64,000 bases of DNA, from the IMG/VR virus record IMGVR_UViG_3300043409_003130, positions 18,526-82,525 of that record; one strand, 5' to 3'. This DNA is from a virus. This document shows positions 3,001 through 59,099 of the stretch, in pieces; the first letter of the stretch is position 1, and each line of letters begins with the position of its first letter. The notes below the pieces were generated by a model. That model searched no databases, had not been told where the DNA came from, and was given only the letters and a program-made list of their open reading frames with translations. The translations under genes and the position numbers were made by a program.

Positions 3001-6000
3001 AGCGGTACATCTGGTTCAAGTGGAACTTCAGGCTTTGATGGGTCATCTGGTTCAAGTGGAACCTCTGGTATATCAGGTTCAAGTGGAACATCTGGTTCAA
3101 GCGGAACCTCAGGATCAAGCGGTTCAAGTGGTGAATCTGGTTCAAGCGGAACTTCTGGTTCAAGCGGTTCTAGTGGAACTTCTGGTTCAAGCGGAACAAG
3201 TGGTATAAACGGTTCAAGCGGTACATCCGGTATTTCTGGAGTAAATGGAACTTCCGGTTCAAGTGGAACTTCAGGTAGTTCAGGCTCTAGCGGAACTTCT
3301 GGTTCAAGCGGTGAATCTGGTTCTTCCGGTTCAAGTGGAACTTCTGGATCAAGTGGAATAGACGGGTCTTCTGGTACATCAGGTTCAAGCGGCACATCTG
3401 GTTCTTCAGGCTCAAGCGGTAGCTCAGGAACTTCTGGTACATCAGGTGCATCAGGTTCAAGTGGAACAAGTGGTAGCTCAGGTTCAAGTGGAACTTCCGG
3501 TTCTTCAGGTTCAAGTGGAACTTCGGGTATAAACGGTTCAAGCGGTACTTCAGGTATTTCTGGAATAAATGGTACATCAGGGTCAAGTGGAATAAGTGGT
3601 AGCTCTGGTTCAAGCGGTAGCTCAGGAACTTCAGGCTCAAACGGTACTTCAGGAACAGCCGGGTCAGATGGTTCAAGCGGAACTTCTGGTTCTAGTGGAA
3701 CATCTGGTATAAACGGTTCAAGTGGAACTTCTGGTTCTTCTGGATCAAGTGGAACAGCTGGATCTTCAGGAACCTCTGGTTCTTCAGGAACTTCAGGTTC
3801 AAGTGGAACTTCTGGTTCTTCAGGTTCAAGTGGAACTTCTGGTTCTTCTGGTTCAAGCGGAACCTCTGGTATAAATGGTTCAAGTGGAACTTCTGGTATT
3901 TCTGGAGTAAATGGAACTTCTGGTTCAAGTGGAATTTCCGGTTCTTCTGGAACATCAGGAATAAGTGGAAGCTCAGGAACTTCCGGTTCTGACGGTTCAA
4001 GCGGTAGTTCAGGGTCAAGTGGTGCTTCGGGTTCTTCTGGTTCAAGCGGCACTTCTGGTTTGGACGGTTCAAGCGGTAGTTCAGGCTCTAGTGGAACTTC
4101 TGGTTCTTCTGGTTCAAGCGGTGAATCTGGTTCTTCTGGTACATCAGGTTCAAGCGGTTCAAGCGGTTCTAGTGGAACAAGTGGTATAAATGGTTCAAGT
4201 GGAACGTCCGGTATTTCTGGTATAAATGGAACATCAGGTTCAAGTGGAATTTCCGGCTCAAGTGGAACTTCTGGTATTTCAGGTTCAAGTGGTAGTTCAG
4301 GAACTTCTGGATCAAGCGGAACTTCTGGTATTTCAGGTTCAAGCGGAACATCTGGTTCCGATGGATCTAGTGGTAGTTCAGGTATTTCTGGTTCAAGTGG
4401 GACTTCTGGTTCTTCTGGAACTTCCGGTTCAAGTGGAACTTCTGGTTCTTCTGGTTCAAGTGGAACCTCTGGTTCTAGTGGTAGTTCTGGTTCTTCAGGT
4501 TCAAGTGGTACTTCTGGTATAAACGGTTCAAGTGGAACGTCAGGTATTTCTGGAATAAACGGTACTTCAGGATCAAGCGGAATAAGTGGTAGTTCAGGTT
4601 CAAGTGGAACATCGGGTTCAAGCGGTACATCTGGTTCAAGCGGGTCAAGCGGAACTTCTGGTTTAGCTGGATCAAGTGGAACATCTGGTTCAGATGGCTC
4701 AAGTGGAACATCAGGAATAAGTGGAAGCTCAGGAACTTCAGGTTCAGATGGTTCAAGCGGTAGTTCTGGTTCTTCAGGTTCAAGTGGAACTTCTGGTTCT
4801 TCTGGTTCAAGCGGAACCTCTGGTTCTAGTGGTAGTTCGGGAACATCTGGTATAAATGGTTCTAGTGGAACATCTGGTATTTCAGGAATAAATGGTACAT
4901 CCGGTTCTTCAGGTTCAAGCGGTACATCTGGTATAAATGGTTCAAGTGGAACCTCTGGTTCTTCTGGTTCAAGTGGTGAATCTGGTTCTTCCGGTTCAAG
5001 CGGAACTTCTGGATCAAGTGGAATAGACGGGTCTTCTGGGACGTCAGGTTCAAGCGGTAGTTCTGGTTCTTCAGGTTCAAGTGGTAGCTCAGGAACTTCT
5101 GGTTCAAGTGGAATTTCAGGATCAAGCGGTAGTTCTGGTTCTTCAGGTTCAAGTGGTACCTCTGGTATAAATGGTTCTTCTGGAACATCAGGTATTTCTG
5201 GAGTAAATGGTACATCTGGTTCAAGCGGAACCTCAGGAATAAGCGGTAGCTCAGGAACTTCTGGTATATCAGGTTCAAGTGGTAGCTCAGGAACTTCTGG
5301 AACATCAGGTTCAAGTGGGACTTCAGGTTCTTCTGGAACTTCAGGTTCAAGTGGAACTTCCGGTAATGATGGTTCTTCCGGTTCAAGCGGAACTTCTGGT
5401 ATTTCAGGTTCAAGCGGTTCAAGTGGAACTTCTGGCTTAAGCGGTAGTTCAGGAACTTCTGGTATAAATGGTTCTTCTGGAACTTCCGGTTCAAGTGGAA
5501 CTTCAGGTATTTCAGGAATAAACGGAACATCAGGTTCTAGTGGAACTTCAGGTATAAATGGTTCAAGCGGAACTTCAGGTTTAAATGGTTCTTCTGGAAC
5601 CTCTGGCCTAAGTGGTAGTTCAGGAACTTCAGGTTCAAGCGGTACATCCGGTTCAAGTGGTACATCTGGTATAAATGGATCAAGTGGTACATCTGGTTCA
5701 AGTGGGACTTCGGGTTCTTCCGGTTCAAGTGGAACTTCTGGAACATCAGGTTCAAGTGGGACTTCAGGTTCAAGTGGTACATCTGGTTCTTCAGGTTCAA
5801 GCGGAACTTCTGGTTTAAATGGTTCAAGTGGAACATCTGGTATAAATGGTACTTCTGGTTCAAGCGGTACTTCTGGATCAAGTGGAACATCTGGTTCTAG
5901 TGGTAGCTCAGGAACTTCAGGTTCAAGCGGATTAAGCGGAGTAAATGGAATAGACGGTTCAAGTGGAACTTCTGGTATAAATGGTTCAAGTGGAACATCT

Positions 6001-8493
6001 GGTTCTTCTGGATCAAGCGGAACTTCTGGGTCTAGCGGAACTTCAGGTTCTAGTGGGTCTAGTGGAACATCTGGTTCTTCTGGATCAAGCGGAACATCTG
6101 GTTCTAGTGGTAGTTCAGGAACTTCAGGTATAAATGGTAGTTCAGGAACTTCGGGTATAAATGGTTCAAGTGGAACTTCAGGCTCAAGTGGAACTTCGGG
6201 TTCAAGTGGTTCTAGTGGAACTTCAGGTTCAAGTGGTTCTAGTGGAACGTCTGGTTCTTCTGGAACATCTGGGTCTAGTGGAACATCTGGAACTTCTGGT
6301 TCTAGTGGTACTTCTGGATCAAGCGGAACTTCTGGTATTTCAGGAATAAATGGTACTTCAGGTTCAAGCGGTATTTCAGGTTCAAGTGGAACTTCTGGAA
6401 TATCTGGAACTTCAGGTTCAAGTGGTAGTTCAGGCTCTAGTGGAACTTCTGGTATTTCAGGTTCAAGTGGAACTTCTGGTTCAAGCGGTAGTTCAGGTTC
6501 AAGCGGAACGTCTGGTTCTTCAGGTTCAAGCGGTAGTTCAGGAATATCTGGTTCTTCTGGAACTTCTGGTTCAAGTGGTTCAAGCGGTTCATCTGGTACA
6601 TCAGGTTCAAGTGGTACTTCTGGTATTTCAGGAATAAATGGTACATCTGGTACATCTGGTGCAACTGGTTCAAACGGTTCTTCTGGAACTTCAGGTTCAA
6701 GTGGTAGCTCAGGTACATCAGGTTCAAGTGGTAGTTCAGGTTCAAGCGGAACTTCTGGTTCTAGCGGTAGTTCTGGAACATCAGGTATAAATGGTTCAAG
6801 CGGTAGCTCTGGAACTTCTGGAAATTCAGGTTCAAGTGGGACTTCGGGTTCTTCAGGCTCAAGCGGTAGTTCAGGTTCTTCAGGTTCAAGTGGTAGTTCT
6901 GGAACATCAGGCGTATCAGGTTCAAGTGGAACATCTGGAATATCTGGAACTTCTGGTTCAAGTGGTAGCTCAGGTACATCAGGTTCAAGTGGTAGTTCAG
7001 GTTCAAGTGGAACTTCTGGTTCAAGTGGAACTTCTGGTTCTTCAGGTTCAAGTGGTAGTTCTGGAACATCAGGTTTAAGCGGTTCAAGTGGTACTTCTGG
7101 TATTTCTGGAGTAAATGGAACTTCTGGTACTTCTGGTGCAAATGGTTCAAGCGGAACCTCTGGTTCAAATGGTTCAAGCGGTACTTCTGGTAATTCAGGT
7201 TCTAGCGGGTCAAGTGGAACTTCCGGTAACTCAGGTTCAAGTGGTACGTCTGGCTTAAACGGTGCAAATGGTTCAAGCGGAACTTCAGGTTCAAGCGGAA
7301 CTTCTGGTTCTTCAGGCTCAAGCGGTAGTTCAGGTTCTTCAGGTTCTAGTGGTAGTTCAGGAACTTCCGGTTCTTCAGGTTCGTCAGGTTCAAGTGGAAC
7401 TTCTGGTATAAATGGTTCAAGCGGAACCTCTGGTACGTCAGGTGCAACTGGGTCAAATGGCTCTAGTGGAACATCAGGTTCAAGCGGTAGCTCTGGAACA
7501 TCAGGCTCTTCTGGTTCAAGTGGAACAAGCGGCAGCTCAGGTTCAAGCGGTAGTTCAGGAACATCAGGCTCAAGCGGTTCAAGTGGAACTTCTGGTATTA
7601 GTGGCAGTTCAGGTACTTCAGGTATTTCTGGAGTAAATGGAACTTCTGGTACATCAGGCGGAACTGGTTCAAACGGTTCAAGTGGAACTTCAGGTTCTTC
7701 AGGTTCTAGCGGTACGTCCGGTGCAACTGGTTCAAACGGTTTAAATGGTTCAAGTGGAACTTCAGGTTCTTCAGGTTCTAGTGGTGCAACCGGCTCAAAC
7801 GGTTCTTCTGGAACTTCAGGTTCTAGTGGATCAAGCGGTTCAACTGGTTCAAATGGTTCTTCTGGAACTTCAGGTTCTAGCGGTACTTCTGTTGCTGTTT
7901 CTGGAACAAATAATACCCTTGTTAAATTTACATCTTCTTCAACTGTTGGTAATTCAACAATAACGGATGATGGAACTAATATAAAAGCGACAACAACTTC
8001 ATTAGTCGCTGGATATGACCCAACTCCATTAGCTGGAACCATACGAGACGGGGTAACATCAGTGCTAGGTGATTTAAATTCATGGAATAGTAATTTCTAT
8101 CAAGGAACTGTATTATATTCAGAAACAGCAGGAGCAACAATTACCTTTGGTCAATTATGTTATAGAACACAAAACGAAACTTGGGAATTAGCTGATGCAA
8201 CAGCAATTGCATCCGCAGCAACTAACATGTTAGGCATTTGTGTTAAATCTTCAACTTCAACTAATCCAACTTCCATACTAATTAATGGGTTTGTTGAAAC
8301 TGCTACTTATGCAGCTATTTTAAAATCTGGAGAACCTTTGTATATGGCTATAACTGCAGGCAGTATGACTAAAACCGCACCAACCACTGCTGGAAACATA
8401 GTTAGATTAATAGGTCATACATTTTGGGACTCTAATACAAATTCAAAAATAGTAATACGCTTTAATCCTGAAAATTCTTGGATAGAATTATAA
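1..8493 (+). CDS. Giant collagen-like tail fibre protein (5' partial)
   Basis: The frame is open from base 1 to the TAA at 8491-8493 without an early start codon, so the gene begins upstream; at least 2,830 residues are visible. About 23 ordinary residues precede 869 Gly-X-Y triplets (bases 70-7890, almost all GSS, GTS, GIS, GIN, GSD), followed by a C-terminal domain of about 200 residues rich in T, S and hydrophobics. Collagen-like repeats with a C-terminal globular domain are typical of trimeric phage fibres and adhesins. The repeats contain essentially no proline, which is unusual for collagen, and roughly two thirds of their residues are Ser or Thr. The next genes encode a Gly-rich adhesin, a small tail protein and a glycosyltransferase of a protein O-glycosylating type, so the fibre is the obvious acceptor. 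Third codon positions vary between repeats, showing selection on the protein. Fibre role is inferred; the open frame is direct. Confidence 0.85.
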   Translation, partial: TYGTINPYIRGFYYIGDTLADSVGTSGTSGTSGITGSSGTSGSSGTSGLSGSSGTSGLSGSSGTAGSSGTSGSSGTSGIDGSAGTSGSSGSSGTSGSSGSSGTSGIDGSSGTSGSSGSSGSSGSSGTSGSDGSSGSSGSSGSSGTSGSSGSSGSSGSSGTSGSSGTAGSSGTSGISGINGTSGSNGTSGTAGSSGTSGSSGTSGSNGSSGTSGSNGSSGTSGINGSSGTSGISGINGTSGSSGTSGSSGTSGSNGSSGTSGTSGSSGTAGSSGTSGINGSSGTSGISGINGAAGSNGTSGTSGSDGSSGSSGISGSSGSSGSDGSSGSSGTSGSSGTSGINGSSGTSGISGINGTSGSSGISGSSGSSGTSGISGTSGSSGISGSSGSSGSSGSSGSSGSSGSSGSSGTSGSDGSSGTSGTAGTSGSSGTSGINGSSGTSGINGSSGTSGISGINGTSGSSGISGSSGTSGSSGSSGISGSSGTSGIDGSSGTSGSSGISGSSGSSGSSGTSGSSGSSGESGSSGTSGSSGTSGSSGTSGINGSSGTSGISGINGTSGSSGISGSSGTSGISGSSGTSGVNGTSGTSGSSGIDGSSGTSGTAGSSGTAGSSGSSGSSGSSGSSGSSGTSGSSGSSGSSGISGSSGTSGISGINGTSGSSGTSGISGSSGTSGISGSSGTSGISGSSGSSGSSGIDGSSGTSGSSGSSGTSGSSGISGSSGTSGTAGTSGSDGSSGTSGSSGTSGINGSSGTSGISGINGTSGSSGTSGSSGISGSSGTSGISGSSGTSGISGSSGSSGSDGSSGSSGTSGISGSSGTSGSSGIDGSSGTSGSSGSSGTSGSSGTSGINGSSGTSGISGINGTSGSSGTSGISGSSGTSGSSGTSGLAGSSGTSGLAGSSGTSGSDGSSGTSGISGSSGTSGSDGSSGTSGSSGSSGTSGSSGSSGASGSSGSSGTSGINGSSGTSGISGINGTAGSSGSSGTSGINGSSGTSGSSGIGGSSGTSGSSGTSGFDGSSGSSGTSGISGSSGTSGSSGTSGSSGSSGESGSSGTSGSSGSSGTSGSSGTSGINGSSGTSGISGVNGTSGSSGTSGSSGSSGTSGSSGESGSSGSSGTSGSSGIDGSSGTSGSSGTSGSSGSSGSSGTSGTSGASGSSGTSGSSGSSGTSGSSGSSGTSGINGSSGTSGISGINGTSGSSGISGSSGSSGSSGTSGSNGTSGTAGSDGSSGTSGSSGTSGINGSSGTSGSSGSSGTAGSSGTSGSSGTSGSSGTSGSSGSSGTSGSSGSSGTSGINGSSGTSGISGVNGTSGSSGISGSSGTSGISGSSGTSGSDGSSGSSGSSGASGSSGSSGTSGLDGSSGSSGSSGTSGSSGSSGESGSSGTSGSSGSSGSSGTSGINGSSGTSGISGINGTSGSSGISGSSGTSGISGSSGSSGTSGSSGTSGISGSSGTSGSDGSSGSSGISGSSGTSGSSGTSGSSGTSGSSGSSGTSGSSGSSGSSGSSGTSGINGSSGTSGISGINGTSGSSGISGSSGSSGTSGSSGTSGSSGSSGTSGLAGSSGTSGSDGSSGTSGISGSSGTSGSDGSSGSSGSSGSSGTSGSSGSSGTSGSSGSSGTSGINGSSGTSGISGINGTSGSSGSSGTSGINGSSGTSGSSGSSGESGSSGSSGTSGSSGIDGSSGTSGSSGSSGSSGSSGSSGTSGSSGISGSSGSSGSSGSSGTSGINGSSGTSGISGVNGTSGSSGTSGISGSSGTSGISGSSGSSGTSGTSGSSGTSGSSGTSGSSGTSGNDGSSGSSGTSGISGSSGSSGTSGLSGSSGTSGINGSSGTSGSSGTSGISGINGTSGSSGTSGINGSSGTSGLNGSSGTSGLSGSSGTSGSSGTSGSSGTSGINGSSGTSGSSGTSGSSGSSGTSGTSGSSGTSGSSGTSGSSGSSGTSGLNGSSGTSGINGTSGSSGTSGSSGTSGSSGSSGTSGSSGLSGVNGIDGSSGTSGINGSSGTSGSSGSSGTSGSSGTSGSSGSSGTSGSSGSSGTSGSSGSSGTSGINGSSGTSGINGSSGTSGSSGTSGSSGSSGTSGSSGSSGTSGSSGTSGSSGTSGTSGSSGTSGSSGTSGISGINGTSGSSGISGSSGTSGISGTSGSSGSSGSSGTSGISGSSGTSGSSGSSGSSGTSGSSGSSGSSGISGSSGTSGSSGSSGSSGTSGSSGTSGISGINGTSGTSGATGSNGSSGTSGSSGSSGTSGSSGSSGSSGTSGSSGSSGTSGINGSSGSSGTSGNSGSSGTSGSSGSSGSSGSSGSSGSSGTSGVSGSSGTSGISGTSGSSGSSGTSGSSGSSGSSGTSGSSGTSGSSGSSGSSGTSGLSGSSGTSGISGVNGTSGTSGANGSSGTSGSNGSSGTSGNSGSSGSSGTSGNSGSSGTSGLNGANGSSGTSGSSGTSGSSGSSGSSGSSGSSGSSGTSGSSGSSGSSGTSGINGSSGTSGTSGATGSNGSSGTSGSSGSSGTSGSSGSSGTSGSSGSSGSSGTSGSSGSSGTSGISGSSGTSGISGVNGTSGTSGGTGSNGSSGTSGSSGSSGTSGATGSNGLNGSSGTSGSSGSSGATGSNGSSGTSGSSGSSGSTGSNGSSGTSGSSGTSVAVSGTNNTLVKFTSSSTVGNSTITDDGTNIKATTTSLVAGYDPTPLAGTIRDGVTSVLGDLNSWNSNFYQGTVLYSETAGATITFGQLCYRTQNETWELADATAIASAATNMLGICVKSSTSTNPTSILINGFVETATYAAILKSGEPLYMAITAGSMTKTAPTTAGNIVRLIGHTFWDSNTNSKIVIRFNPENSWIEL
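70..7890 (+). repeat. 18-bp-period coding repeat (Gly-Ser-Ser-Gly-Thr-Ser)
   Basis: The dominant unit is 18 nt, GGT TCA AGT GGA ACT TCT, coding GSSGTS, interspersed with GIN, GIS, GSD, GLS and GAT variants. The Gly phase is the same at 70 and at 7882 (868 x 9 nt apart), so there is no net phase change over 7.8 kb. In GSS the first Ser mostly uses TCN and the second AGY, codon families that cannot interchange by one base change, so they record the ancestral unit. Copies are diverged at synonymous sites rather than identical. Confidence 0.9.
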
Positions 8494-12210: not shown

Positions 12211-12828
12211 ATGATTTTAAACTCAAGACAGAATGGATTTCTAATAAATTTACCGCAGGATTTTTTTAATGCTGAGGTTCAAACCCGATATGATAAATAT
12301 TACAGAAATTTATTATTACCGTATAAGTCAATTTCAGATTTTATGGCATCTACCATTCAAGGAGTTAATTTTCCAGGTTTAACAACGGTATTGCCTACTC
12401 AAATTAGAACACTAGGCAAAATTCAAGAAGTGCAAAGTGCAAAACCTATTGCGGATATGTTTACTAGAGAGTTAAAATTAACTTTTAAGTTAACTGATGC
12501 ATATCTTAACTATTTTATATTTTTAGATAATGCACTAAATTATTTAGAACCAGCAAACACCTCAACCTCGTATATTGGAAATACGGCACTAGGCCAATCG
12601 TTAACCGTTCCGCCAATTGCCAATAATAATCATCCATTTTTTAGTCCAATCCGATTAACTCTATTAAATAACGAAGGGTATGCAGTAAGTTCAGTAATAT
12701 TTAACCGGCCTCAGCTTAAACAGCTCAGTGAATTAACCCTAAGTTATTCAGCAGTGGTTCCAAAGTTTAGCTTTTTTACTGCAACTTTTAGCTATTATAA
12801 TTTTGATTTAGAATTAGACTTTGACTAA
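12211..12828 (+). CDS. Putative tail tube / tube-cap protein (gp19/gp54-like)
   Basis: A 205-residue protein. After a short N-terminal extension it shows 'GVNFPGLT' and 'KPIADMFTRELKLTFKLTDAYLNYFIFLDNAL', an insertion rich in N and P, then 'SPIRLTLLNNEG' and a closing 'YSAVVPKFSFFTATFSYYNFDLEL'. This beta-rich order, with a strand pair near 85-115 and a final F-x-Y-x-x-F-x-I/L-E strand, is that of T4 tube-type proteins gp19 and gp54. Overlaps the stop of the convergent nucleotidyltransferase gene by 4 nt. GATAAT at 12200-12205 is 5 nt before the ATG and could be a -10 box. Assignment to tube versus tube cap cannot be made by eye. Confidence 0.5.
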   Translation: MILNSRQNGFLINLPQDFFNAEVQTRYDKYYRNLLLPYKSISDFMASTIQGVNFPGLTTVLPTQIRTLGKIQEVQSAKPIADMFTRELKLTFKLTDAYLNYFIFLDNALNYLEPANTSTSYIGNTALGQSLTVPPIANNNHPFFSPIRLTLLNNEGYAVSSVIFNRPQLKQLSELTLSYSAVVPKFSFFTATFSYYNFDLELDFD

Positions 12829-13622
12829 TCGATTCCGCCTGGAATTACTAAACCTTCTTCTGCTAGTTTAGCTCGATACTCTTTTAAAATAAGAGGCATA
12901 TTTAATTTAGGATTAGTACTTTGACTAGCGGTTGTTAATAAAGCGAGCGTCTTTTCGTAGGTATTCCATTTAGCATATGGATAATTTTTTCCAAATAATA
13001 TATCTGAAATTTCAGGAATTGTATCTGCAATAAGCTTGCGATCAACTATTTTATAATTAATCTTTTTTAATTCTTTAGTAAATTGATATATTCCGTCCGG
13101 TCTAAACATATATCCTTTAAACTGGGTTACAGTACTGTTCTTTTCAATTTTATCAAACTGCATAGAGTCTAGTGCACAAAATATCAAAAAGACTCGGTGC
13201 TTAGTGGAATAGTCTTCTTCATCAATTGACTTATAGAAAATATCATTTATATTACGATTTGTGTCTAATGGTTTGACAAACATATCAAATTGTACAAAGT
13301 GCCCTTTAGAAATTTCAAATTTAACTGACACAATATTAAATCCATAAAATATTTTTGTTTCGTATCCAGCCGTTTGAATTTTTGCTGATATATCAGGCAA
13401 ACTAAGCTCAGAATAAAATAGTGCATCAAGATCTCCGGAAATATCTTTTTGTCTCCATGAACCAATTAATTCAAGTTCAGCTTCTCCAAATAATTGAGTC
13501 ATTGCACTTTGGAATTTAGCAAAGGCCGGCTCAACTTCTGCACGATTAAGACTCTGTGCATCCGGAAAAGCATTTCCACCTTCGGTAACGGTAAATGTTT
13601 TAAACTCTACTAGATACTTCAT
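12825..13622 (-). CDS. Nucleotidyltransferase-like protein with capsid-targeting-type N-terminus
   Basis: A 265-residue protein. The motif G54-S55-W-R-x-x-D-x-S-G-D64-L-D66, with a third acidic residue in V-Q-F-D113-M-F, is the metal-binding signature of polymerase-beta-type nucleotidyltransferases. The substrate (nucleotide, RNA or protein AMPylation target) cannot be read. The first residues, MKYLVEFKTFTVTE followed by GG, match the capsid-targeting peptide seen in at least twelve other proteins here, with V-T-E|G as a plausible prohead-protease site. It is last in the leftward late operon (spanins, gp15-like, this gene), overlapping the gp15-like stop by 4 nt. I infer a virion-packaged enzyme delivered at infection. 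Confidence 0.65.
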   Translation of the reverse strand: MKYLVEFKTFTVTEGGNAFPDAQSLNRAEVEPAFAKFQSAMTQLFGEAELELIGSWRQKDISGDLDALFYSELSLPDISAKIQTAGYETKIFYGFNIVSVKFEISKGHFVQFDMFVKPLDTNRNINDIFYKSIDEEDYSTKHRVFLIFCALDSMQFDKIEKNSTVTQFKGYMFRPDGIYQFTKELKKINYKIVDRKLIADTIPEISDILFGKNYPYAKWNTYEKTLALLTTASQSTNPKLNMPLILKEYRAKLAEEGLVIPGGID

Positions 13623-38760: not shown

Positions 38761-39243
38761 ATGATTAATACATTTGAAAAGTTCGCTAATCGTGACTCTA
38801 AAAAAAAGAGAGACAGTGCAGGAATTGCAATAATTTACAATTCAAAAAATTCTAAACCTAAAATTTTATTGGTTCATGCAACCAATGGTAGCTGGGCCAA
38901 GCCAGTTATGGGAATTCCCAAGGGTAAAATAGAGGATGGCGAATCTCCAGAAGATGCTGCAGTTAGGGAAACATACGAGGAAATTGGCATACTGATTAAG
39001 CCTAATCAAGTAGAGCCACATACTGAAATAATTCAGGTATATTCTGGCAAAACGGTTATTAATAATATTCACTATTTAATTTGTAATATCGATAGCCTAT
39101 CTGAAATTGGCTTAACTGGTTTAACCGTGCCTAAATCACAATTACAAAGTGGCGAAATTGACTGGGCTGGGTTTATTGATATTGAGCTAGCCTATTCTAA
39201 AATAGCAGCAGCTCAGCGAATAATTTTAGATAGATTTTCCTGA
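38761..39243 (+). CDS. Nudix hydrolase
   Basis: A 160-residue protein with a complete Nudix box from G55: G-K-I-E-D-G-E61-S-P-E-D-A-A-V-R69-E70-T-Y-E73-E74-I-G-I77. Nudix enzymes cleave nucleoside diphosphates linked to other groups (NTPs, NADH, ADP-sugars, capped RNA). The substrate is not evident. The N-terminus MINTFEKFANRDS resembles the capsid-targeting peptide in its first eight residues but lacks a clear cleavage Glu, so packaging is uncertain. Confidence 0.9.
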   Translation: MINTFEKFANRDSKKKRDSAGIAIIYNSKNSKPKILLVHATNGSWAKPVMGIPKGKIEDGESPEDAAVRETYEEIGILIKPNQVEPHTEIIQVYSGKTVINNIHYLICNIDSLSEIGLTGLTVPKSQLQSGEIDWAGFIDIELAYSKIAAAQRIILDRFS

Positions 39244-40042: not shown

Positions 40043-40068
40043 AAAAAGCCGCATTAGCGGCTTTTTTT
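40043..40068. terminator. Bidirectional terminator between convergent genes
   Basis: AAAAAGCCGC-ATTA-GCGGC-TTTTTTT: a GC stem with a 4-nt loop flanked by A and T runs, so it can stop transcription from both sides. It overlaps the 3' end of the minus-strand ATP-grasp gene. Confidence 0.85.
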
Positions 40069-41181
40069 GGTAAGATCCTTTAATAGTCGTTTGGCATAGT
40101 CAACTGGCCTTTGAATTGCAGTTTTTCTAATATCAGGTAATATTTTAAATAAATTTCTTCCTGGAATTGAATTTACCTCTAACATGTAGATTTCGCCACT
40201 TTGATCTATTAAAAAATCCAATCCAACTTCGCCAATCGGACCAGACTTTTTATCTAAAATATCAAATATTACCTGTGATGAATCTCTAATTGACTGGGCA
40301 ATCGGGCCGTCTATGTCTTGGTTAAATATTGATTTTAAAATATTACTTAGGGTTTCTTTACTGCCGCCTTGATGTAAATTTGCTGTAATTTTACTGGGCT
40401 TAGCCAATCTAACTGCCATACCTGTTCGTATAGGTTTTTTAGCCTTATCTCGTTGATATATTACCCTAACGTCAAATACTCCTCCGTTATATTGAGGTAG
40501 AGCAATACACTCCTGAATAATATAGGTTCGGCCATTAGACCTCATGCTTTTACGAACTTCATCAATACGGTCTACTAAATTTAAGTCAGTTGCCGTGGTT
40601 GACTTATCTAAATATTTAATTAAATAGCCTGACTCTTTTTTAGCTACCTTAATTATACCTTTACCGCCGGATCCAAATCTAGGTTTAATAATTGCTTCTG
40701 GGTAATTACTCATAAACCTAATAAGATTAGATTTACTGTATTTTTGGGTATGCGGAATCTTTAATTTGCCAAGGTCTTCATTTATTAAGGTTTTGTGTGT
40801 TAAATATTTATCAAGTGAAACTTTTCTAAAATCTGGACTGTTTAGCGGAGTACACCCAAGATTTAATAAAAATCGGGTATTTGAAGTTTTACCGGTATTG
40901 GTTTTATTTTTAAAGCTTCTATCATAAAATACCGCAGGTAGTCCTCTAACTGATGAGGTCCAATCATCATTAACTAGGGTCCAGGCAGTACAGCCAGTTG
41001 AGGTAAAGTCAGTAAATACAAATGCATCAATCTCTGAGTCATTTGCATATTGAATTAATTCTTTAAAATAGCCGGTTTGTTCACCAAATTGAGAGTCCTC
41101 ACCGGTGTCACCAAGTATCCCAAATGCCTGATCCTGTGCAGTTGAATCTAAATATTCTGCAAATTCAAAAAGATACTTCAT
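40054..41181 (-). CDS. ATP-grasp enzyme (YheC/YheD-like) with capsid-targeting-type N-terminus
   Basis: A 375-residue protein. The ATP-grasp fold is marked by AIIKPRFGSGGKGIIKV (nucleotide-binding loop near 162-178), YIIQECIALPQYNGGVFDVRVIYQR and the metal site GEVGLDFLIDQSGEIYMLEV then NSIPG (about 320-347). This order matches YheC/YheD and related ligases that join a carboxylate to an amine; the substrate is unknown. The start MKYLFEFAEYLDS matches the packaged-protein peptide, though the cleavage Glu is less clear. An ATAAATAA element (minus strand, 41188-41195) precedes it. Confidence 0.72.
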   Translation of the reverse strand: MKYLFEFAEYLDSTAQDQAFGILGDTGEDSQFGEQTGYFKELIQYANDSEIDAFVFTDFTSTGCTAWTLVNDDWTSSVRGLPAVFYDRSFKNKTNTGKTSNTRFLLNLGCTPLNSPDFRKVSLDKYLTHKTLINEDLGKLKIPHTQKYSKSNLIRFMSNYPEAIIKPRFGSGGKGIIKVAKKESGYLIKYLDKSTTATDLNLVDRIDEVRKSMRSNGRTYIIQECIALPQYNGGVFDVRVIYQRDKAKKPIRTGMAVRLAKPSKITANLHQGGSKETLSNILKSIFNQDIDGPIAQSIRDSSQVIFDILDKKSGPIGEVGLDFLIDQSGEIYMLEVNSIPGRNLFKILPDIRKTAIQRPVDYAKRLLKDLTKKSR

Positions 41182-41210
41182 ATTAATTTATTTATCTCTA
41201 CTGTGTTCTA

Positions 41211-41218
41211 TATAAATA
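41211..41218 (+). promoter_or_regulatory. Late promoter TATAAATA (rightward, divergent region)
   Basis: CTATATAAATAAC: the exact TATAAATA core 53 nt before the ATG at 41272. The minus strand of the same 90-nt gap carries ATAAATAA at 41188-41195 for the leftward ATP-grasp gene, so the gap holds two divergent late promoters. Confidence 0.65.
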
Positions 41219-41271: not shown

Positions 41272-42303
41272 ATGATATTTAAATCATTTAATCAGTTTAT
41301 AACCGAATCAAATTCAGCAAGTTTAGTACCGGTTAATGAAGGTATTTTTCAACAGGACGTAGTTTTTAAACTTAAAAAAAGAACAGCAGACGAAGACGGC
41401 GGTGAACGTGCTAAGCTTTCAATGATTGCAAAAGTTAATCCACCAAACGGTACTCCTGAACCTGCAGCAATAGAGTTAGTTAGACAAATGGCTCAAGATA
41501 AATTAGCAAATGATGCACTATTTAAAGTATCAACGGAAGGTAATATTGTATTTATTACAATAGATAAAAATAGACAAAGATTTGTGATTAATGACCAGGC
41601 AATATTAATTGCCGTACTATCATTTAGAAATTCTGATAATTTTGATATGTCAAAGGCCGATAGTTTAAACTTAAAACCGTTTATGATAGCCGGTGATATA
41701 CAAATTTGGGAAGACAAAGATATGGCTGCCTTATCTAAATTAAATGTAACTAACCCCATTAAACAAGGGAAAAATCAAGAGATTATTGATGATGAGCATA
41801 AAGAGAATAAAGAGAATAAGCAGACTGATCAAACTCCAATTAAGTTACCTACTGCTGATTCTGATGTATTGGCATTTTTAAAAGAAAAGCTGTTAGGCGA
41901 TGCTGGAAAAGTAGTTGAATCAGTTAATGGCACAGTTGCACTTGCTAAATCTGGAATAAAGAGTAGAGAAGTAAAATTTGCCCAGTTAATATTATTAGCT
42001 CCTGAATTTAGTAAAGAATTACCTAATATAAAACTTGCAAGTACGCTAGGTTCAGCAGACGGATCCTACGGACCAAAAACAGCAGCGGCATATGGTCTTC
42101 TACTTGATGGTAAGTCAGATACTTCACGTAATTCGCTTGAAGTAGCCGACATTGAAAAACTTGCTCAATACTGTACCTTAGTTAAATTAACCAAACCTAG
42201 ATTACAACAAATATGGGATGCATCTGAGTTAAAAACTGGAGGTGAAGATAAATCCGATACCAGCGGTAAGGACGGGTCATTTACCTTTGTTAATAAACCT
42301 TAA
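41272..42303 (+). CDS. Putative packaged protein with peptidoglycan-binding-like C-terminal part
   Basis: A 343-residue protein. The N-terminus MIFKSFNQFITESNSA fits the capsid-targeting peptide with I-T-E|S as cleavage site; a second candidate, V-N-E|G, follows at residues 21-24. Residues 25-150 are mixed alpha/beta, 165-190 acidic and disordered (HKENKENKQ). The region near 235-280 ends with SADGSYGPKTAAAYGLLLDG, which resembles the closing D-G-x-F/Y-G-P-x-T-x-x-A of peptidoglycan-binding domain 1. It is followed by another packaged-type protein gene 21 nt on. Confidence 0.5.
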   Translation: MIFKSFNQFITESNSASLVPVNEGIFQQDVVFKLKKRTADEDGGERAKLSMIAKVNPPNGTPEPAAIELVRQMAQDKLANDALFKVSTEGNIVFITIDKNRQRFVINDQAILIAVLSFRNSDNFDMSKADSLNLKPFMIAGDIQIWEDKDMAALSKLNVTNPIKQGKNQEIIDDEHKENKENKQTDQTPIKLPTADSDVLAFLKEKLLGDAGKVVESVNGTVALAKSGIKSREVKFAQLILLAPEFSKELPNIKLASTLGSADGSYGPKTAAAYGLLLDGKSDTSRNSLEVADIEKLAQYCTLVKLTKPRLQQIWDASELKTGGEDKSDTSGKDGSFTFVNKP

Positions 42304-42324: not shown

Positions 42325-43980
42325 ATGAAACATATAAATTTAACAAACTATGCAATTCTTACTGAGAATAAAAGTAGTGGATACTATTCAGTAACTGAAG
42401 CTGATATTGTTGCACCAAAGATTGCGGCAAAACCACTCTCAATTGATGCTGGAGACTCTGAAGAAATTAAGGCAATAAAGGGTGTAATTATTAACAAGAC
42501 TCCAGTTGAGGCATTTAATGCATTAACCGCAGGAGCTACTGCTTTAGCTGCTTCTACTTCTGTAAAATCAGTAGTTGATATTACAATTGATACTAAAACC
42601 TATAAGGTTGACTTAAATAAAATAGCTGATACAAAACCTTCTCAAATTTGGATTGACTATGACAGTGCAAGTCTAAAATTAATTGAAGGCTTAAATTTAG
42701 AATATATTACAAATTATATAAGGGAACAAACCGAGGGTATTGGAACAGCTGAGGAAGAACTTGCCTCAATGGCTGGTGCAATATACGCATATTGTAGAGA
42801 AAACGGTGGCAATACTAAAGCCGTAATGGCAGCAGTTGCAGACTACTATACTAAAAATAAAGGTCAAGAATTTTATTCAATGTTAGATGATGACTTTGAT
42901 GGTTCTCCTAAAGTATTAGTTGATGCCTTATTTGGAAAAACTGTTACTCAAGATCAAATTAATACTGCATTAATGGTGGATGCAGGTCAAAGTTTATTAG
43001 TTGATTTAACAATTATGTTAGGAACTTGGGGATTAACGGCCCTTAGTGCTGGCGCCGCTGCTCCAGCTGCGGCTGTTCAAACTGCTAGGGTTGGATCTAC
43101 CTTAAAAAATATATTTACTTTTGGAAAATCCGCAAGGACAGCCAAAGCTTTAGAAACTGGAATTGTTGCAGCTGAAACTGCATTAACTGGAGCTAAGCTA
43201 CTAACTGGTGCTAATAAACTAAGACAACTAGGCTCTGCAATTAGTCTAAGTGCCGAAGAGGTTAAATTAATACAGGGTGTTAAAAATGCATCTCAGATTA
43301 ATAGGTTCCTAACTGCAACCAAAGGCGGTTCCATGAGTTTGAATGGACAAAAAATGGCAGCTGAACTTGCAGCAGATTCTCCTGGTTTTTTTAAATCAAT
43401 TAAGGAGCTATTTAAAATTTCTCCAGGTGTAGTAACCAAATTAGTTGCAGCAGTTGGTGGTCCTAAAACTGCTACATTAATCGCAACTGCGCCTGGAGCA
43501 ATAGATACTATTCTTGATACCACTGCCTGGGTAACCAGTAATCCAGAAGATGAAAATGAAACTGGTTCAAGTACTGATATTAGCGAAGATGGTATTAATA
43601 AACTTGTAAATGCACTATATAATGAGGCTAAGAGCGGAACTTTTGGATATACAGATGGAGGCGCTGAACTTAAAATTGCATTTTTAATGTTGAGTTTAAC
43701 TCCACAAACATATGAGTTAGTAGATAAAGCCTGGACAATTTCATATGGCGATAAATACGGAAATTTATATGATTCATGTGTTGCTGGAGAATTAGATTTT
43801 GATCTATTTGATTTAGTTAATGGCTATTTAGGTAGTTTTGGAAAAGGCGAACTTGCCGGACAGGTTGCAAAACTTAAAGCTAATATAGCTAAGCCAGCTA
43901 GCGCTGAACCAGTAAAACCAATAAAGGAGTCAATTACACAAGCTAGGCTAAAAACGTTTAATGATTTTTACAAAAAATAG
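42325..43980 (+). CDS. Large Ala-rich putative internal/ejected protein
   Basis: A 551-residue protein. MKHINLTNYAILTEN at the start has L-T-E as possible cleavage site, and V-T-E|A occurs at residues 23-26. Residues 130-200 include 'EGIGTAEEELASMAGAIYAYC', helical and perhaps annexin-like by chance. From 225 to 420 it is Ala/Leu-rich with amphipathic and hydrophobic helices (LLVDLTIMLGTWGLTALSAG), suited to membrane insertion. The C-terminal part has 'AELKIAFLMLSLTPQTYELVDKAW'. I infer a core protein injected with DNA. A terminator follows. Confidence 0.5.
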   Translation: MKHINLTNYAILTENKSSGYYSVTEADIVAPKIAAKPLSIDAGDSEEIKAIKGVIINKTPVEAFNALTAGATALAASTSVKSVVDITIDTKTYKVDLNKIADTKPSQIWIDYDSASLKLIEGLNLEYITNYIREQTEGIGTAEEELASMAGAIYAYCRENGGNTKAVMAAVADYYTKNKGQEFYSMLDDDFDGSPKVLVDALFGKTVTQDQINTALMVDAGQSLLVDLTIMLGTWGLTALSAGAAAPAAAVQTARVGSTLKNIFTFGKSARTAKALETGIVAAETALTGAKLLTGANKLRQLGSAISLSAEEVKLIQGVKNASQINRFLTATKGGSMSLNGQKMAAELAADSPGFFKSIKELFKISPGVVTKLVAAVGGPKTATLIATAPGAIDTILDTTAWVTSNPEDENETGSSTDISEDGINKLVNALYNEAKSGTFGYTDGGAELKIAFLMLSLTPQTYELVDKAWTISYGDKYGNLYDSCVAGELDFDLFDLVNGYLGSFGKGELAGQVAKLKANIAKPASAEPVKPIKESITQARLKTFNDFYKK

Positions 43981-51044: not shown

Positions 51045-51152
51045 ATGAAAACTTTCCTAAATAAAGCAGTTGACTGTATTGGTATTACATTAATGATTAC
51101 TGTAGTAGTTATTGGAATAGTATCTGAAATACTAAATATTATGCAATATTAA
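51045..51152 (+). CDS. Tiny single-span membrane protein
   Basis: A 35-residue frame starting at the ATG 51045, 10 nt after the previous stop: a short basic head MKTFLNKAVD, a membrane helix CIGITLMITVVVIGIVSEIL, and the tail NIMQY. Size and shape fit small phage membrane peptides. Its end overlaps the end of the convergent hydrolase gene by 14 nt. Coding status is plausible but unproven. Confidence 0.42.
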   Translation: MKTFLNKAVDCIGITLMITVVVIGIVSEILNIMQY

Positions 51153-52362
51153 ACTTATCACTGGCCGCAACTGCATGACTTCGATGGCTACTTGCTGTGC
51201 CACCTGCATTAACATCTGCAAAAAATTCAGCAGCGTCAGTTTTATCAGTAAATGTTGGAAAGCTTGATGCGGGTTTTCCTTTTGTTGCAAATGCTACTGC
51301 AATCTCTGCCGCTACATTAGGATCGTTTACCAAATCCGGATTGCCAACTAGGTCTTTACCTATTATATTTCCGTATTTTTTATAATTAGCTCTACCAGTT
51401 AACTGATTAAATCCGCGGCCTCTATATAGGTAGCCGTCTCCGCTTGACACTGGTCCATTACCAATAATATTTGCATAAACCAAATTAAAAAAATCTTCCG
51501 GCTTATTCTTAAGATCATCTAATTCTGAATCAGATAAGCTGCTAACTCTACTTCCAAATACTTCTTTAATTCTTGAGTTTGAGGTTGTGTCATACGGAAC
51601 TTCACTTTTAGGTTTAAAATTACACTCTTTTGAAATTACGGATAGAATACCTATTTGGGTAAGCGGGTCAGTTATTCCATTATCGGTCAGCGCGCTAATT
51701 AATAATGAAATATTTTCTTTTTGATTTGCGTCAAAGTTTCCAGAGCTAATATCAATATTACCAGTAGATTGGGAACCACCGCTCGTGGTAGATTTAGTAG
51801 ACTTGTCTAAATCACTTTGGCTAAAATTCTTCTCTTTTAGCTTTTCAATTAATCGCTTAATTAAATCTGCATTAATTAATACTTCATCGCCTCCAGAGGT
51901 TTCAGTAGATTGTGGCAAATTAAGTTTATCAATATATTCGGCTGGATCAACCACCTCATTATTTACAGTAACTGTAAAATGTAAATGTGGCCCTGTTGAA
52001 TTTCCTTTTCCTATATCGTTAGCACCTCCGCCGCTTAATCCAATAACTTGACCTTGTTTAACTTGATCACCGGTACTTACATCAACCTGTTTAATATGAC
52101 AATAACCGGTTATAATATTATTAGCATGTTTAATTCTAATAGTTCCACCGCACATACTATTACCATTTATATTAGCAACAATTACCTCTCCGTCAGCTGG
52201 TGAACTAACTGGCGTTCCAGATGCAGTCGCCAAATCAACACCATTATGCGGACGTGATGTCCTGGGTTCCCCAAATGGATGAGTTACATTAAAAACCGGT
52301 AATGGAGACATTAGGGTTGACTCATTAAGTGTTTTTATAAATTTGTTAAAACTGCTTATCAT
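51139..52362 (-). CDS. Virion-type peptidoglycan hydrolase: M23 endopeptidase plus GH19-like muramidase/chitinase fold
   Basis: A 407-residue protein. MISSFNKFIKTLNE|ST is a capsid-targeting-type start. Residues 30-140 are an M23 (LytM) domain: H39-N-G-V-D43, later YCHI near 88 and GPHLHF with H126 and H128 as zinc ligands. A helix module VLINADLIKRLIEKLKEKNF (161-180) is shared with the neighbouring amidase. Residues 215-400 carry a GH19-type lysozyme/chitinase fold: YRGRGFNQLTGRANYKKYG and the Glu of SVISKECNFKP. Two different cell-wall cleavages in one packaged protein suggest use at entry, lysis, or both. Confidence 0.83.
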   Translation of the reverse strand: MISSFNKFIKTLNESTLMSPLPVFNVTHPFGEPRTSRPHNGVDLATASGTPVSSPADGEVIVANINGNSMCGGTIRIKHANNIITGYCHIKQVDVSTGDQVKQGQVIGLSGGGANDIGKGNSTGPHLHFTVTVNNEVVDPAEYIDKLNLPQSTETSGGDEVLINADLIKRLIEKLKEKNFSQSDLDKSTKSTTSGGSQSTGNIDISSGNFDANQKENISLLISALTDNGITDPLTQIGILSVISKECNFKPKSEVPYDTTSNSRIKEVFGSRVSSLSDSELDDLKNKPEDFFNLVYANIIGNGPVSSGDGYLYRGRGFNQLTGRANYKKYGNIIGKDLVGNPDLVNDPNVAAEIAVAFATKGKPASSFPTFTDKTDAAEFFADVNAGGTASSHRSHAVAASDKFNIA

Positions 52363-52377
52363 TTAATTTATTTATTT

Positions 52378-53130
52378 TTAAGTATTATCAGTAGACTTGG
52401 AATCAGTATCGGTCTTCTTGGAATTACTTGGTAGTTTAATATCGTCATCTGAAAAGTTTTTATCTTTAAGCGTATTAATTAATTTTTTAATTAATTCAGA
52501 AGTAATAACTGTATTACCGCTAGCTGTATTAGAACTATGACTAGCTTTATCAACATTGGTTTCTTTATCAAATACAGATAAGTCAATTGGGTCGTCAAAG
52601 TGATCCATTACATATTTTTTAATTGTTGCACCTTCAGTTGCGGCCTTACTGCCTGGATTTACTTCACCATGACCAAATATTTGATCCTTAGTATATCCAA
52701 TATGTTTAATAATCTTTAATACAGCAATTCCCTGTTCAGGCATTTGTATATCAGCATCATTACTTGCAATAACCTCAACCCCTTGGGCATTGGCATTTGA
52801 AATTCCTGGAGGTGCTCCACGATCACGATATGCTCTACTGTCAGAAGACCCTACGTGTGCGCCTATTGAATTTGAAGGAAGTGTTTTATAAATTGTACCA
52901 TCTCTATCAACCACCCACTGTACGCCTAATCCGCCTCTAGCATTTAAAACACCAACCACCTGGTGAGCAGTTCCACGACCTGCCGTATGGTGAATTATAA
53001 AAAAATTATTTGACTTAATAGGCTGGCCTTTTCTAGCATATTGAGACTCGCTTGAAATATCTATAATTTCAGTCTGTGCCTCAACTGCTTCATTTATAAA
53101 TTTTTTAAAATTTAATATATTAATTGCCAT
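52378..53130 (-). CDS. N-acetylmuramoyl-L-alanine amidase with capsid-targeting-type N-terminus
   Basis: A 250-residue zinc amidase (amidase_2/PGRP type) that cuts between MurNAc and L-Ala. FFIIHHTAGRGTAHQVV gives H47-H48; the fold continues with GVQWVVDRDGTIYKTLP, GAHVG, and FGHGEVNPGSKAATEG near the second metal His. The start MAINILNFKKFINE|AV is a packaged-protein peptide. After the domain, residues about 208-230 (VITSELIKKLINTLKDKNFS) repeat the helix module of the M23/GH19 neighbour, and the tail is Ser/Asp-rich. Middle gene of a leftward wall-hydrolase set. Confidence 0.88.
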   Translation of the reverse strand: MAINILNFKKFINEAVEAQTEIIDISSESQYARKGQPIKSNNFFIIHHTAGRGTAHQVVGVLNARGGLGVQWVVDRDGTIYKTLPSNSIGAHVGSSDSRAYRDRGAPPGISNANAQGVEVIASNDADIQMPEQGIAVLKIIKHIGYTKDQIFGHGEVNPGSKAATEGATIKKYVMDHFDDPIDLSVFDKETNVDKASHSSNTASGNTVITSELIKKLINTLKDKNFSDDDIKLPSNSKKTDTDSKSTDNT

Positions 53131-57120: not shown

Positions 57121-57243
57121 ATGCAAAAATCAACAAAAAATCAAAAATTAAAAAAAGTGGCTTATAATTTTGGCAGGCTTGCCAATTTTATTAAAGTTAA
57201 AGTACATTTACTTAAAAATAATTTATTAAAATGGGAAAAATAA
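57121..57243 (+). CDS. Short basic leader-like ORF overlapping dnaK start
   Basis: A 40-residue frame, [20 protein letters not shown], then [20 protein letters not shown], with 12 basic and one acidic residue. It begins after a probable promoter (TATAGTATATTAAAAAG, about 57095-57111) and its stop TAA (57241-57243) lies just inside dnaK, whose ATG is at 57231. It could be a translationally coupled leader or a small basic protein. Support is limited to start, composition and coupling. Confidence 0.42.
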
Positions 57244-59099
57244 TAGGAATAGACTTGGGAACAACTAATAGTTGTGTTTCAGTCATGGAAGGTAATGAAC
57301 CTGTGGTTATTGCAAATAATGAAGGAAAACGGACCACACCTTCAATTGTTGCCTTTATCGAAGGCGGCGAACGTAAAGTTGGAGATCCAGCAAAACGACA
57401 GTCAATCACTAATCCTAAAAAAACAGTTTATTCAATTAAACGTTTTATGGGTCACACGTACGCTGAGATTGTAAAGGAAATTGCAAAAGTTCCTTATCTA
57501 ATAGTAAAAGGCGAAAACAATAGCCCACGTGTAGAAATTGACGATAGAAAATATACTGCTCAAGAAATTTCGGCTATCATTTTACAAAAAATGAAAAAAA
57601 CAGCCGAAGAATATTTAGGAACCGAAGTAACTGAAGCGGTTATTACTGTTCCTGCTTACTTTAATGATGCTCAACGCCAGGCAACCAAAGAGGCCGGCGA
57701 AATTGCAGGTTTAACGGTAAAGCGAATTATCAATGAGCCAACTGCTGCCGCTCTTGCCTATGGTATGGATAAAAAAGGCAAGGAGATGAAAATTGTTGTG
57801 TTTGATTGCGGAGGCGGTACACATGACGTTTCTGTTCTTGAACTGGGTGATGGAGTATTTGAGGTTAAAAGTACCGATGGAGATACTCACCTAGGTGGAG
57901 ATGATTTTGATCAGGTAATTATTGACTGGTTAGCCGATGAATTTAAAAAAGAAGAAGGTTTAGATTTACGTCACGACCCAATGTCTCTGCAACGATTAAA
58001 AGAAGGAGCTGAAAAGGCAAAAGTTGAATTATCTAGTTCAACCAGTACCGAAATTAATTTACCGTATATAATGCCGGTAAATGGAATACCTAAACACCTA
58101 GTTAAAACACTTACTCGTGCTAAATTTGAACAGTTATCAGATAGTTTGATTAAGCGTACAATTAAACCATGTAAATCTGCTCTAAAAAATGCAGGTTTAT
58201 CAACGGCTGATATTGATGAAATTATCCTGGTTGGTGGATCAACCCGAATTCCAGCTATTCAAGCAGCAGTTGAAAAATTCTTTGGTAAAGCCCCAAATAG
58301 AAGCGTAAATCCGGATGAAGTGGTTGCACTAGGCGCCGCAATTCAAGGAGGAGTTTTATCTGGAGATGTAAAGGACGTATTATTATTGGACGTTACTCCA
58401 TTATCATTAGGTATTGAAACCGTTGGTGGAGTATTTACAAAATTAATAGAGTCAAATACAACTATTCCAACTAAAAAATCGCAAGATTTTAGTACAGCGG
58501 CCGATAACCAGCCATCAGTTCAAATAGTTGTTTTTCAAGGTGAGAGACCAATGGCAAAAGATAATAGAAAGTTAGGTGAATTTAATTTAGATGGAATTCC
58601 GCCAGCGCAAAGAGGTGTACCTCAAGTTGAAGTTACTTTGGATATTGATGCAAATGGTATCTTAAATGTAAGTGCAAAAGATAAAGCAACCGGTAAATCA
58701 CATAATATTCGGATTGAGGCAAAAAGCGGTTTAAGCAAAGAAGAAATTGATCGCATGAAAAGAGAGGCTGAACTAAATGCCGACTCTGATAAAAAAGTAA
58801 AAGAAGAAGTTGAGAAATTAAATGAAGCTGATAGTATGGTTTTTCAAACCGAAAAACAATTAAATGAATATGGAGATAAAATACCTGCCGAGAAAAAGAC
58901 AGGTATTGAAACCGCTTTAACTGAGTTAAAGGAGGCTTATTCAGCTAAAGACCTTTCAAAAATTGACTCTGCTCTAGCTGCAATAAATGCAGCCTGGACA
59001 GCAGCCAGTGAAGATATGTATAAAGCCAATCAGGCCGAACCTACTTCGCCTACTGCTGATGAGCCAGTTGCAGATGCCGATTTTGAAGAGGTAAAATAA
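57231..59099 (+). CDS. dnaK: Hsp70 chaperone DnaK, full length
   Basis: A 622-residue Hsp70. The ATPase domain starts [20 protein letters not shown] and includes [34 protein letters not shown] and [13 protein letters not shown]; the linker [15 protein letters not shown] and peptide-binding domain with [20 protein letters not shown] and [20 protein letters not shown] follow, ending in a lid and acidic DFEEVK tail. It closely follows Bacteroidota DnaK in wording. In the phosphate-2 loop the usual D-L-G-G-G-T-F-D is D192-C-G-G-G-T-H198-D. No DnaJ or GrpE is present here, so host partners would be used, perhaps for folding fibre or tail proteins. Probably acquired from a host. Confidence 0.96.

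What the first reader, a model, noticed from the sequence alone, without database searches (positions are those of the whole stretch)
40054..41181. ATP-grasp ligase with packaging-type start
A YheC/YheD-like ATP-grasp enzyme with intact nucleotide and metal motifs begins with MKYLFEFAEYLDS and is preceded by a late-type promoter. Late expression and a packaging peptide are odd for a biosynthetic ligase and suggest it works at the start of the next infection, perhaps by tagging host proteins or cell-wall precursors with amino acids.
Basis: partly seen in the sequence, partly recalled or inferred. Interest (0 to 1): 0.58.

Follow-up and report, generated by a model that had tools for sequence, protein, structure and literature searches.

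The report
Phage ligase with capsid-packaging tail
A large T4-like phage from metagenomes carries a late gene for an amino-acid-joining (ATP-grasp) enzyme whose loose front end resembles the tag T4 uses to load proteins into its head, so the enzyme may be carried in the virus particle into the next cell; neither packaging nor target has been shown.

Summary
It is a bona fide YheC/YheD-type ATP-grasp (Pfam E 1.1e-55). Residues 1-19 are an extra tail: predicted unstructured (1-13), yet conserved at residues 1-10 (F5-E6-F7 invariant in 8 of 8 rows) before a variable linker. The tail resembles capsid-targeting tags found on some 26-36 proteins of two 253-kb relatives, which encode T4-type gp23 and the S77 prohead protease. 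It keeps the positions that target T4 IPIII (4 and 7) but lacks the usual (I/L/V)xE cleavage site at the tag's end; the only conserved candidate is (L/V)FE at residue 6-7, where T4 Alt is cut. A late-type octamer lies 6-9 nt before the ATG in 8 of 8 homologs; the short gap predicts a leaderless late mRNA. Late expression and head packaging are supported inferences; action in the next host is plausible; the substrate is unknown. Best reading: a T4 Alt-like, virion-carried enzyme with new chemistry (amide ligase). The wider tagged set, including several peptidoglycan hydrolases, may be the more interesting lead.

The parts
40054..41181 (-). YheC/YheD-type ATP-grasp ligase, 375 aa, ATG start at 41181
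   Evidence: ORF list; Pfam PF14398 1.1e-55; homologs in IMG/VR
41125..41181 (-). N-terminal tail, residues 1-19: conserved capsid-targeting-like part (1-10) and variable linker (11-19)
   Evidence: pairwise identity 0.74 (2-9), 0.30 (10-19), 0.84 (20-40); pLDDT about 26 for residues 1-10, under 50 for 1-13; profile rank 24 of 419
41164..41172 (-). L4-F5-E6, the only conserved (I/L/V)xE-type candidate prohead protease site; same residue number as the T4 Alt site ITE-6
   Evidence: (L/V)FE in 8 of 8 rows; Alt site from PMC5694885 passages
40084..40818 (-). ATP-grasp catalytic domain, residues 122-366
   Evidence: Pfam match; structural matches to TTL, LysX, RimK, Ddl at Z about 9.5-10.5
41189..41196 (-). 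late-type octamer GATAAATA, 7 nt before the ATG
   Evidence: conserved at 6-9 nt in 8 of 8 homologs; same-strand placement class 5-10 nt
41211..41218 (+). TATAAATA facing the divergent neighbour at 41272; not the promoter of the ligase
   Evidence: an opposite-strand octamer is present in 8 of 8 homologs
40043..40068 (.). GC-rich hairpin with A/T runs on both sides between the convergent genes, stop codon of the ligase in its loop: probable two-way terminator
   Evidence: read directly from the sequence; not tested by scan
41272..42303 (+). divergent neighbour with a full capsid-targeting start MIFKSFNQFITES
   Evidence: conserved neighbour
42325..43980 (+). second neighbour, start MKHINLTNYAILTE
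38761..39243 (+). Nudix hydrolase, start MINTFEKFA, same conserved block
   Evidence: Pfam NUDIX 7.3e-15; synteny in G003 and G006

Best explanation
The gene makes a virion-carried amide-forming ligase. It is transcribed late from its own promoter, probably as a leaderless or nearly leaderless mRNA. Its unstructured N-terminal tail (hydrophobic residue 4, Phe 7) binds the prohead core as in T4, so a modest number of copies are enclosed. The S77 prohead protease either leaves the tail on or cuts after (L/V)FE at residue 6-7, as it cuts T4 Alt after residue 6. The enzyme enters the next host with the DNA and uses host ATP to activate a carboxylate as acyl-phosphate and join it to an amine, most likely adding an amino acid to a host protein, peptide or small carrier, as RimK/MptN-type ligases do. 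Shown here: enzyme family, intact motifs, conserved disordered tail, profile match to the tag set, protease and capsid protein in relatives, conserved late octamer. Inferred: late expression, packaging, ejection, host target, chemistry of the product.
For: YheCD match and conserved catalytic residues, also against two cellular YheCD proteins. Tail conserved at protein level: codons 2-10 of L004 differ from the window by 5 synonymous and 1 non-synonymous changes. Tail disordered in the model and without counterpart in a Paenibacillus YheCD protein, whose likely start lies just before the GIL strand. Tag-like N-termini (regex) on 36 of 309 ORFs in G003 and 26 of 281 in G006 against 1 of 247 and 5 of 227 at an internal position. 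Ligase tail ranks 24 of 419, 2 of 841 control ORFs as high. S77 protease and Gp23 in G003 and G006. In T4, targeting depends mainly on residues 4 and 7, processing on 8 and 10, and Asp-10 blocks processing but not targeting (PMC9026906, passages); Alt is cut at ITE-6 (PMC5694885, passages). Late octamers are enriched upstream on the same strand: at 16-30 nt 39 and 38 against 1 and 1 reverse-complement; at 5-10 nt 11 and 10 against 0 and 0, in G003 and G006. Same place and inverted orientation in 5 of 5 relatives examined besides the window record, one of them with one flank only. A RimK-type ATP-grasp is annotated 'structural protein' in YerA41, a phage with 63 particle-associated proteins by LC-MS/MS (PMC7354516, passages).
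Against: No virion proteomics. The usual (I/L/V)xE at the end of the tag is missing in the window protein and most homologs. L050 and L051 carry one extra residue after Met, so as written they score -14.85 on the ungapped profile. Rank 24 is the lower edge of the tag-like group, and that the 23 clusters above are tags was judged by eye. The S77 protease is not in the window's own 82.5-kb record, which is a fragment. The tag set is not enriched in PTm1 or PAU. The YerA41 paper passages I saw do not name the ATP-grasp protein.
Confidence: 0.5

Rival explanations
1. The tail does bring the enzyme to the prohead core, but its work is done in the producing cell or prohead: it modifies core, capsid or other virion proteins during assembly, and any carried copies are by-products.
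For: Late expression and core association fit equally well. The gene always lies among late, tagged neighbours.
Against: No conserved small substrate gene beside it; the 67-aa ORF at 39820 has no listed counterpart in G003, G006, L050 or L051. Needs ATP inside the prohead or before closure.
Confidence: 0.2
2. The tail is not a targeting tag. It is a short conserved N-terminal arm needed for folding, dimer contact or regulation, and the ligase works late in the cytosol, for example on glycan or nucleotide metabolism.
For: Missing cleavage site; low rank among tags. FkbM-type methyltransferase and glycosyltransferase genes are in the window, and Pfam 'sugar-transfer associated ATP-grasp' also matches (1.2e-14).
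Against: Tail disordered in the model and separated by a variable linker; 6 of its first 7 residues equal those of a fully tagged protein of the same phage, MKYLVEF...TVTE at 12825-13622.
Confidence: 0.22
3. It is a virion structural protein that keeps an ATP-grasp fold without catalysis.
For: None beyond possible packaging.
Against: Nucleotide and metal residues invariant in 8 of 8 rows, and most also kept in two cellular YheCD proteins.
Confidence: 0.04

Closest known systems
T4 Alt (head-packaged ADP-ribosyltransferase)
   Same: Late, tag-bearing enzyme; candidate cut after residue 6 at an (I/L)xE-type site (Alt ITE-6, PMC5694885); about 40 copies enclosed and ejected in T4 (PMC9026906).
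   Different: Different fold and chemistry; packaging here is inferred only.
T4 internal proteins IPI-IPIII and their capsid targeting sequence
   Same: Hydrophobic/aromatic residues at 4 and 7 on a short N-terminal propeptide.
   Different: No conserved (I/L)xE at the end of the tag; cargo is a metabolic-type ligase.
YheC/YheD-like ATP-grasp family (PF14398)
   Same: Full-length domain match and catalytic residues.
   Different: Extra 19-residue tail; the phage clade is 54-94% identical to the window protein and about 23-29% to plasmid-encoded bacterial members.
R2K ATP-grasp peptide ligases of jumbo phages (PMC7824862, passage)
   Same: Phage ATP-grasp ligase predicted to modify host proteins.
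   Different: Different ATP-grasp clade; no tag reported in the passages I saw.
YerA41_066, RimK plus Zn_protease fusion labelled structural protein
   Same: ATP-grasp ligase listed as virion protein in the record.
   Different: RimK clade, not YheCD; different phage group.

Membership tests
YheC/YheD-like ATP-grasp (PF14398) | Score above the curated cut-off over the whole domain | tested here: met
   189.1 bits against 26.8, profile 9-255 of 255
YheC/YheD-like ATP-grasp (PF14398) | Conserved ATP and metal residues | tested here: met
   K166, R239, N268, D322, E335, N337 kept in 8 phage rows and two cellular proteins; E224 not kept in the cellular ones
RimK / MptN / D-Ala-D-Ala ligase equivalogs | NCBIfam cut-off for a named enzyme | tested here: not met
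   best MptN 48.5 of 350 bits, RimK 40.2 of 143.4
T4-type capsid targeting sequence | Hydrophobic/aromatic residue 4 and aromatic residue 7 (targeting) | tested here: met
   L4 or V4 and F7 in 6 of 8 rows, and in L050 and L051 the same pair one residue later; T4 rule from PMC9026906
T4-type capsid targeting sequence | (I/L)xE processing site at the end of the tag (about residues 8-19) | tested here: not met
   window, L002, L003, L004, L007, L051 lack it; L050 (LIE) and L052 (VFE) have one
T4-type capsid targeting sequence | Alternative processing site near residue 6, as in Alt | tested here: inconclusive
   (L/V)FE at 6-7 in 8 of 8 rows; cleavage itself not testable
T4-type capsid targeting sequence | S77 prohead protease in the same phage | tested here: inconclusive
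   present in relatives G003 and G006, not in the fragmentary own record
T4-type capsid targeting sequence | Protein found inside the head | not testable with these tools
   needs virion proteomics
T4-type late promoter | TATAAATA-like octamer on the coding strand upstream of the gene | tested here: met
   GATAAATA or AATAAATA 6-9 nt before ATG in 8 of 8; T4 itself has its octamers at 13-52 nt

The most novel reading that the evidence does not exclude
A clade of T4-like jumbo phages ejects a large enzyme kit, some 26-36 tagged proteins including several peptidoglycan hydrolases, nucleotidyltransferases and an ATP-grasp ligase, and the ligase rewires a host target by amino-acid ligation in the first minutes of infection: a virion-borne YheC/D-type amide ligase.
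Probability: 0.25. Interest if true: 0.75.

Novelty: new variant of a known kind. Interest (0 to 1): 0.5.

Why it matters
Head-packaged enzymes act before any phage gene is expressed; few are known (recalled) and T4 Alt is the standard case. An amide ligase in that role would add new chemistry to host takeover and give a lead to the function of the YheC/D family, for which the listings of three searches of the paper library showed no functional study. The tag is readable in sequence, so the ejected set of this phage group can be predicted and checked by one proteomics run.

Tried and rejected
Close isolate relatives: none; tblastn in 50,697 phage records gave no match at 1e-3 and only 4 records at E up to 10. 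Cellular relatives by pattern scan of genome contigs: none confirmed. A plus-strand TATAAATA as the ligase promoter: rejected by strand. Graspetide-type partner peptide: no conserved small neighbour. Substrate from structure: model confidence is moderate (pLDDT 71, pTM 0.62) and Foldseek TM-scores low (0.27-0.38 of the query in the rows shown), so the fold search says only amide-ligase-like ATP-grasp; the rows are nearly tied. Tags as a general trait of related cultured phages: regex hits in PTm1 6 of 295 (control 4 of 219) and PAU 4 of 288 (control 6 of 236), not enriched. T4 as calibration: 8 of 252 ORFs (control 2 of 176), two of them MKTYQEFIAE proteins; IPI, which I recall as MKTFKEFTS..., is not among the regex hits, but an ORF with that start scored 6.25 on the profile, second in T4. 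Literature on leaderless late mRNAs with this octamer: only the search listing seen. For PMC10537231 I saw passages; nothing relevant to packaging.

Rows dropped: the homolog alignment used 8 rows; L005 and L006 (same protein as L004) and L045-L049 and L053 (the same places fetched again) were left out. Gene tables in my scripts are mechanical ORFs of 60 aa or more with overlaps removed, so counts are approximate. The Pfam scan of tagged proteins covered 20 of the 49 loosely tagged G003 ORFs; of these 49, chance may account for a share (internal control 12 of 261). Paper supplements were not read.

Full report
What is there. The finding lies on the minus strand: a 375-aa ORF from 41181 to 40054. 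It is the only match to itself in the 82,525-base virus record that holds the window. Pfam places it in the YheC/YheD-like ATP-grasp family with E 1.1e-55 over nearly the whole profile; no PHROG matches. The record also encodes a terminase, a baseplate wedge protein and a sigma-like factor.

Relatives. IMG/VR scans gave 9 loci (6 of them already). With the window they make 8 distinct proteins, the other 7 being 54-94% identical to it. Two relatives are on contigs of 253,137 and 252,618 bases. Both hold a T4-type major capsid protein (PF07068, 9.2e-43 and 8.9e-41) and an S77 prohead protease (PF03420, 1.1e-9 and 2.6e-10). The nearest records among annotated phages by terminase or capsid protein are distant (about 30-39% identity): uncultured huge phages, PAU, Tenacibaculum phages and Prevotella Lak phages among them, which points weakly to Bacteroidota hosts. 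None of PTm1, pT24 or PAU has a PF14398 match.

The tail. A Paenibacillus YheCD protein has its likely start a few residues before the GIL strand that corresponds to residues 21-23 of the phage protein, so about 19 residues are extra. AlphaFold2 gives pLDDT about 26 for residues 1-10 and puts the first strand at 17-23. Mean pairwise identity is 0.74 for residues 2-9, 0.30 for 10-19 and 0.84 for 20-40. Codons 2-10 of L004 carry 5 synonymous and 1 non-synonymous change against the window, so it is the peptide that is kept. Conserved disordered end, variable linker, folded domain: that is the layout of a targeting tag.

Is it the tag of this phage group? A regex for a T4-like tag ending in (I/L/V/M)xE hits 36 of 309, 26 of 281, 14 of 148 and 10 of 72 ORFs of G003, G006, G002 and G000; the same pattern at an internal position hits 1 of 247, 5 of 227, 0 of 101 and 0 of 64. 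Typical ends are FINES, FITEA, FVNEN, WLNEA. The ligase does not fit that regex. On a profile of positions 2-11 trained on 9 clusters without it, it scores 7.17 and ranks 24 of 419 clusters; the 23 above look tag-like by eye, some less cleanly than others, and the first clearly unrelated ones score below 5. In PTm1, PAU and T4, 2 of 841 ORFs reach 7.17. Homologs L050 and L051 score -14.85 as written because of one extra residue after Met; L050 with that residue left out scores 6.11 and L052 5.96. The closest start in the window is that of the tagged protein at 12825-13622: MKYLVEFKTFTVTE against MKYLFEFAEYLDS.

How T4 reads such a tag. PMC9026906 (passages) states that targeting of IPIII lies mainly at residues 4 and 7 and processing at 8 and 10, and that Asp at 10 blocks processing but still allows targeting. 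PMC5694885 (passages) states that Alt loses six residues by cutting at ITE-6. The ligase keeps L/V at 4 and F at 7 (register shifted by one in L050 and L051) and (L/V)FE at 6-7 in 8 of 8 rows, and lacks a conserved site further on. So the expected outcome is packaging with an Alt-like cut after residue 6, or packaging without cutting.

Expression. [GAT]ATAAATA is strongly placed upstream of genes on the coding strand: in G003 and G006, 39 and 38 times at 16-30 nt (reverse complement 1 and 1) and 11 and 10 times at 5-10 nt (0 and 0); a first-order Markov model of the pooled upstream regions gives means of 4.0 (16-30) and 1.5 (5-10) for both genomes together, maxima 11 and 6 in 200 runs. The gap between the two classes (11-15 nt: 1 and 0) suggests two kinds of late mRNA. 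With T4 spacing (recalled: start about 6 nt after the octamer) the 5-10 class would be leaderless or nearly so. T4 itself shows 13-52 nt. The ligase belongs to the short class in 8 of 8 homologs (6-9 nt), and an opposite-strand octamer for the divergent neighbour is also present in 8 of 8. The bare count of TATAAATA in the window is not above chance. The gene ends in the loop of a GC-rich hairpin flanked by A and T runs.

Context. In G003, G006, L050, L051 and L052 the ligase gene sits at the same place and runs against its neighbours (in L052 only one flank is held). The divergent neighbour carries a full tag in the window. Tagged proteins with a recognisable domain include M23 plus GH19 and Amidase_2 in the window, and lysozyme, VanY, CHAP and a nucleotidyltransferase in G003 (20 of 49 loosely tagged ORFs scanned; a RecA match among them is probably a chance tag). 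Cell-wall hydrolases with a head-packaging tag are unexpected and I have no good explanation.

Function. NCBIfam's best are MptN (6e-13) and RimK (2.5e-10), far below cut-offs. VIA-align gives TTL, CPS, LysX, Ddl, RimK and an ATP-grasp peptide ligase at Z about 9.5-10.5 over residues about 120-350, nearly tied. Most of these join an amino acid to a carboxylate through an amide bond, so an amide ligase is the best guess. An ATP-grasp protein annotated as structural in YerA41 has RimK (3.7e-37) and Zn_protease (1.1e-6) domains; its paper reports 63 particle-associated proteins by LC-MS/MS and suggests that the DNA- or RNA-modifying enzymes among them are injected (PMC7354516, passages), though the passages I saw do not name this one. 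PMC7824862 (passages) proposes that R2K ATP-grasp ligases of jumbo phages modify host proteins.

Verdict. I put head packaging at about 0.65 and action in the next host through ligation at about 0.5. Targets are open.

Noticed in passing
window 51139-52362 (-), 52378-53130 (-); L018:610-1434, L019:13186-14436, L019:15353-15979: Several peptidoglycan-acting enzymes (M23+GH19, Amidase_2, lysozyme, VanY, CHAP) begin with full T4-type capsid-targeting tags; wall hydrolases inside a phage head would be unusual.
   Followed up: partly
G000, G002, G003, G006; e.g. window 41189-41196: A separate class of late octamers ends 5-10 nt before the ATG (7, 9, 11 and 10 genes), predicting leaderless late mRNAs; T4 has none this close.
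   Followed up: partly
G003 and G006 whole contigs: 26-36 proteins per 253-kb relative carry capsid-targeting-like starts, against 8 regex hits in T4; most of those scanned have no known domain.
   Followed up: partly
phage PAU, JQ362498: Fifteen mechanical ORFs begin with MKTL and seven with MKTI, for example MKTLYSTLLDVLSETK; possibly that phage's own tag family.
   Followed up: no
L059:2629-4050 (YerA41_066): Annotated structural protein of YerA41 is a RimK ATP-grasp fused to a Zn_protease-family (PF05618) domain.
   Followed up: partly
window 57231-59099 (+): Phage-encoded DnaK-like chaperone (by eye from the translation, not searched).
   Followed up: no
window 4060-8493 (+): Very long SSGTSG-type repeat protein, possibly a fibre; its other frames give spurious long ORFs.
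   Followed up: no
window 12825-13622 (-): Tagged protein MKYLVEFKTFTVTE with no Pfam or PHROG match shares the ligase's first residues.
   Followed up: partly
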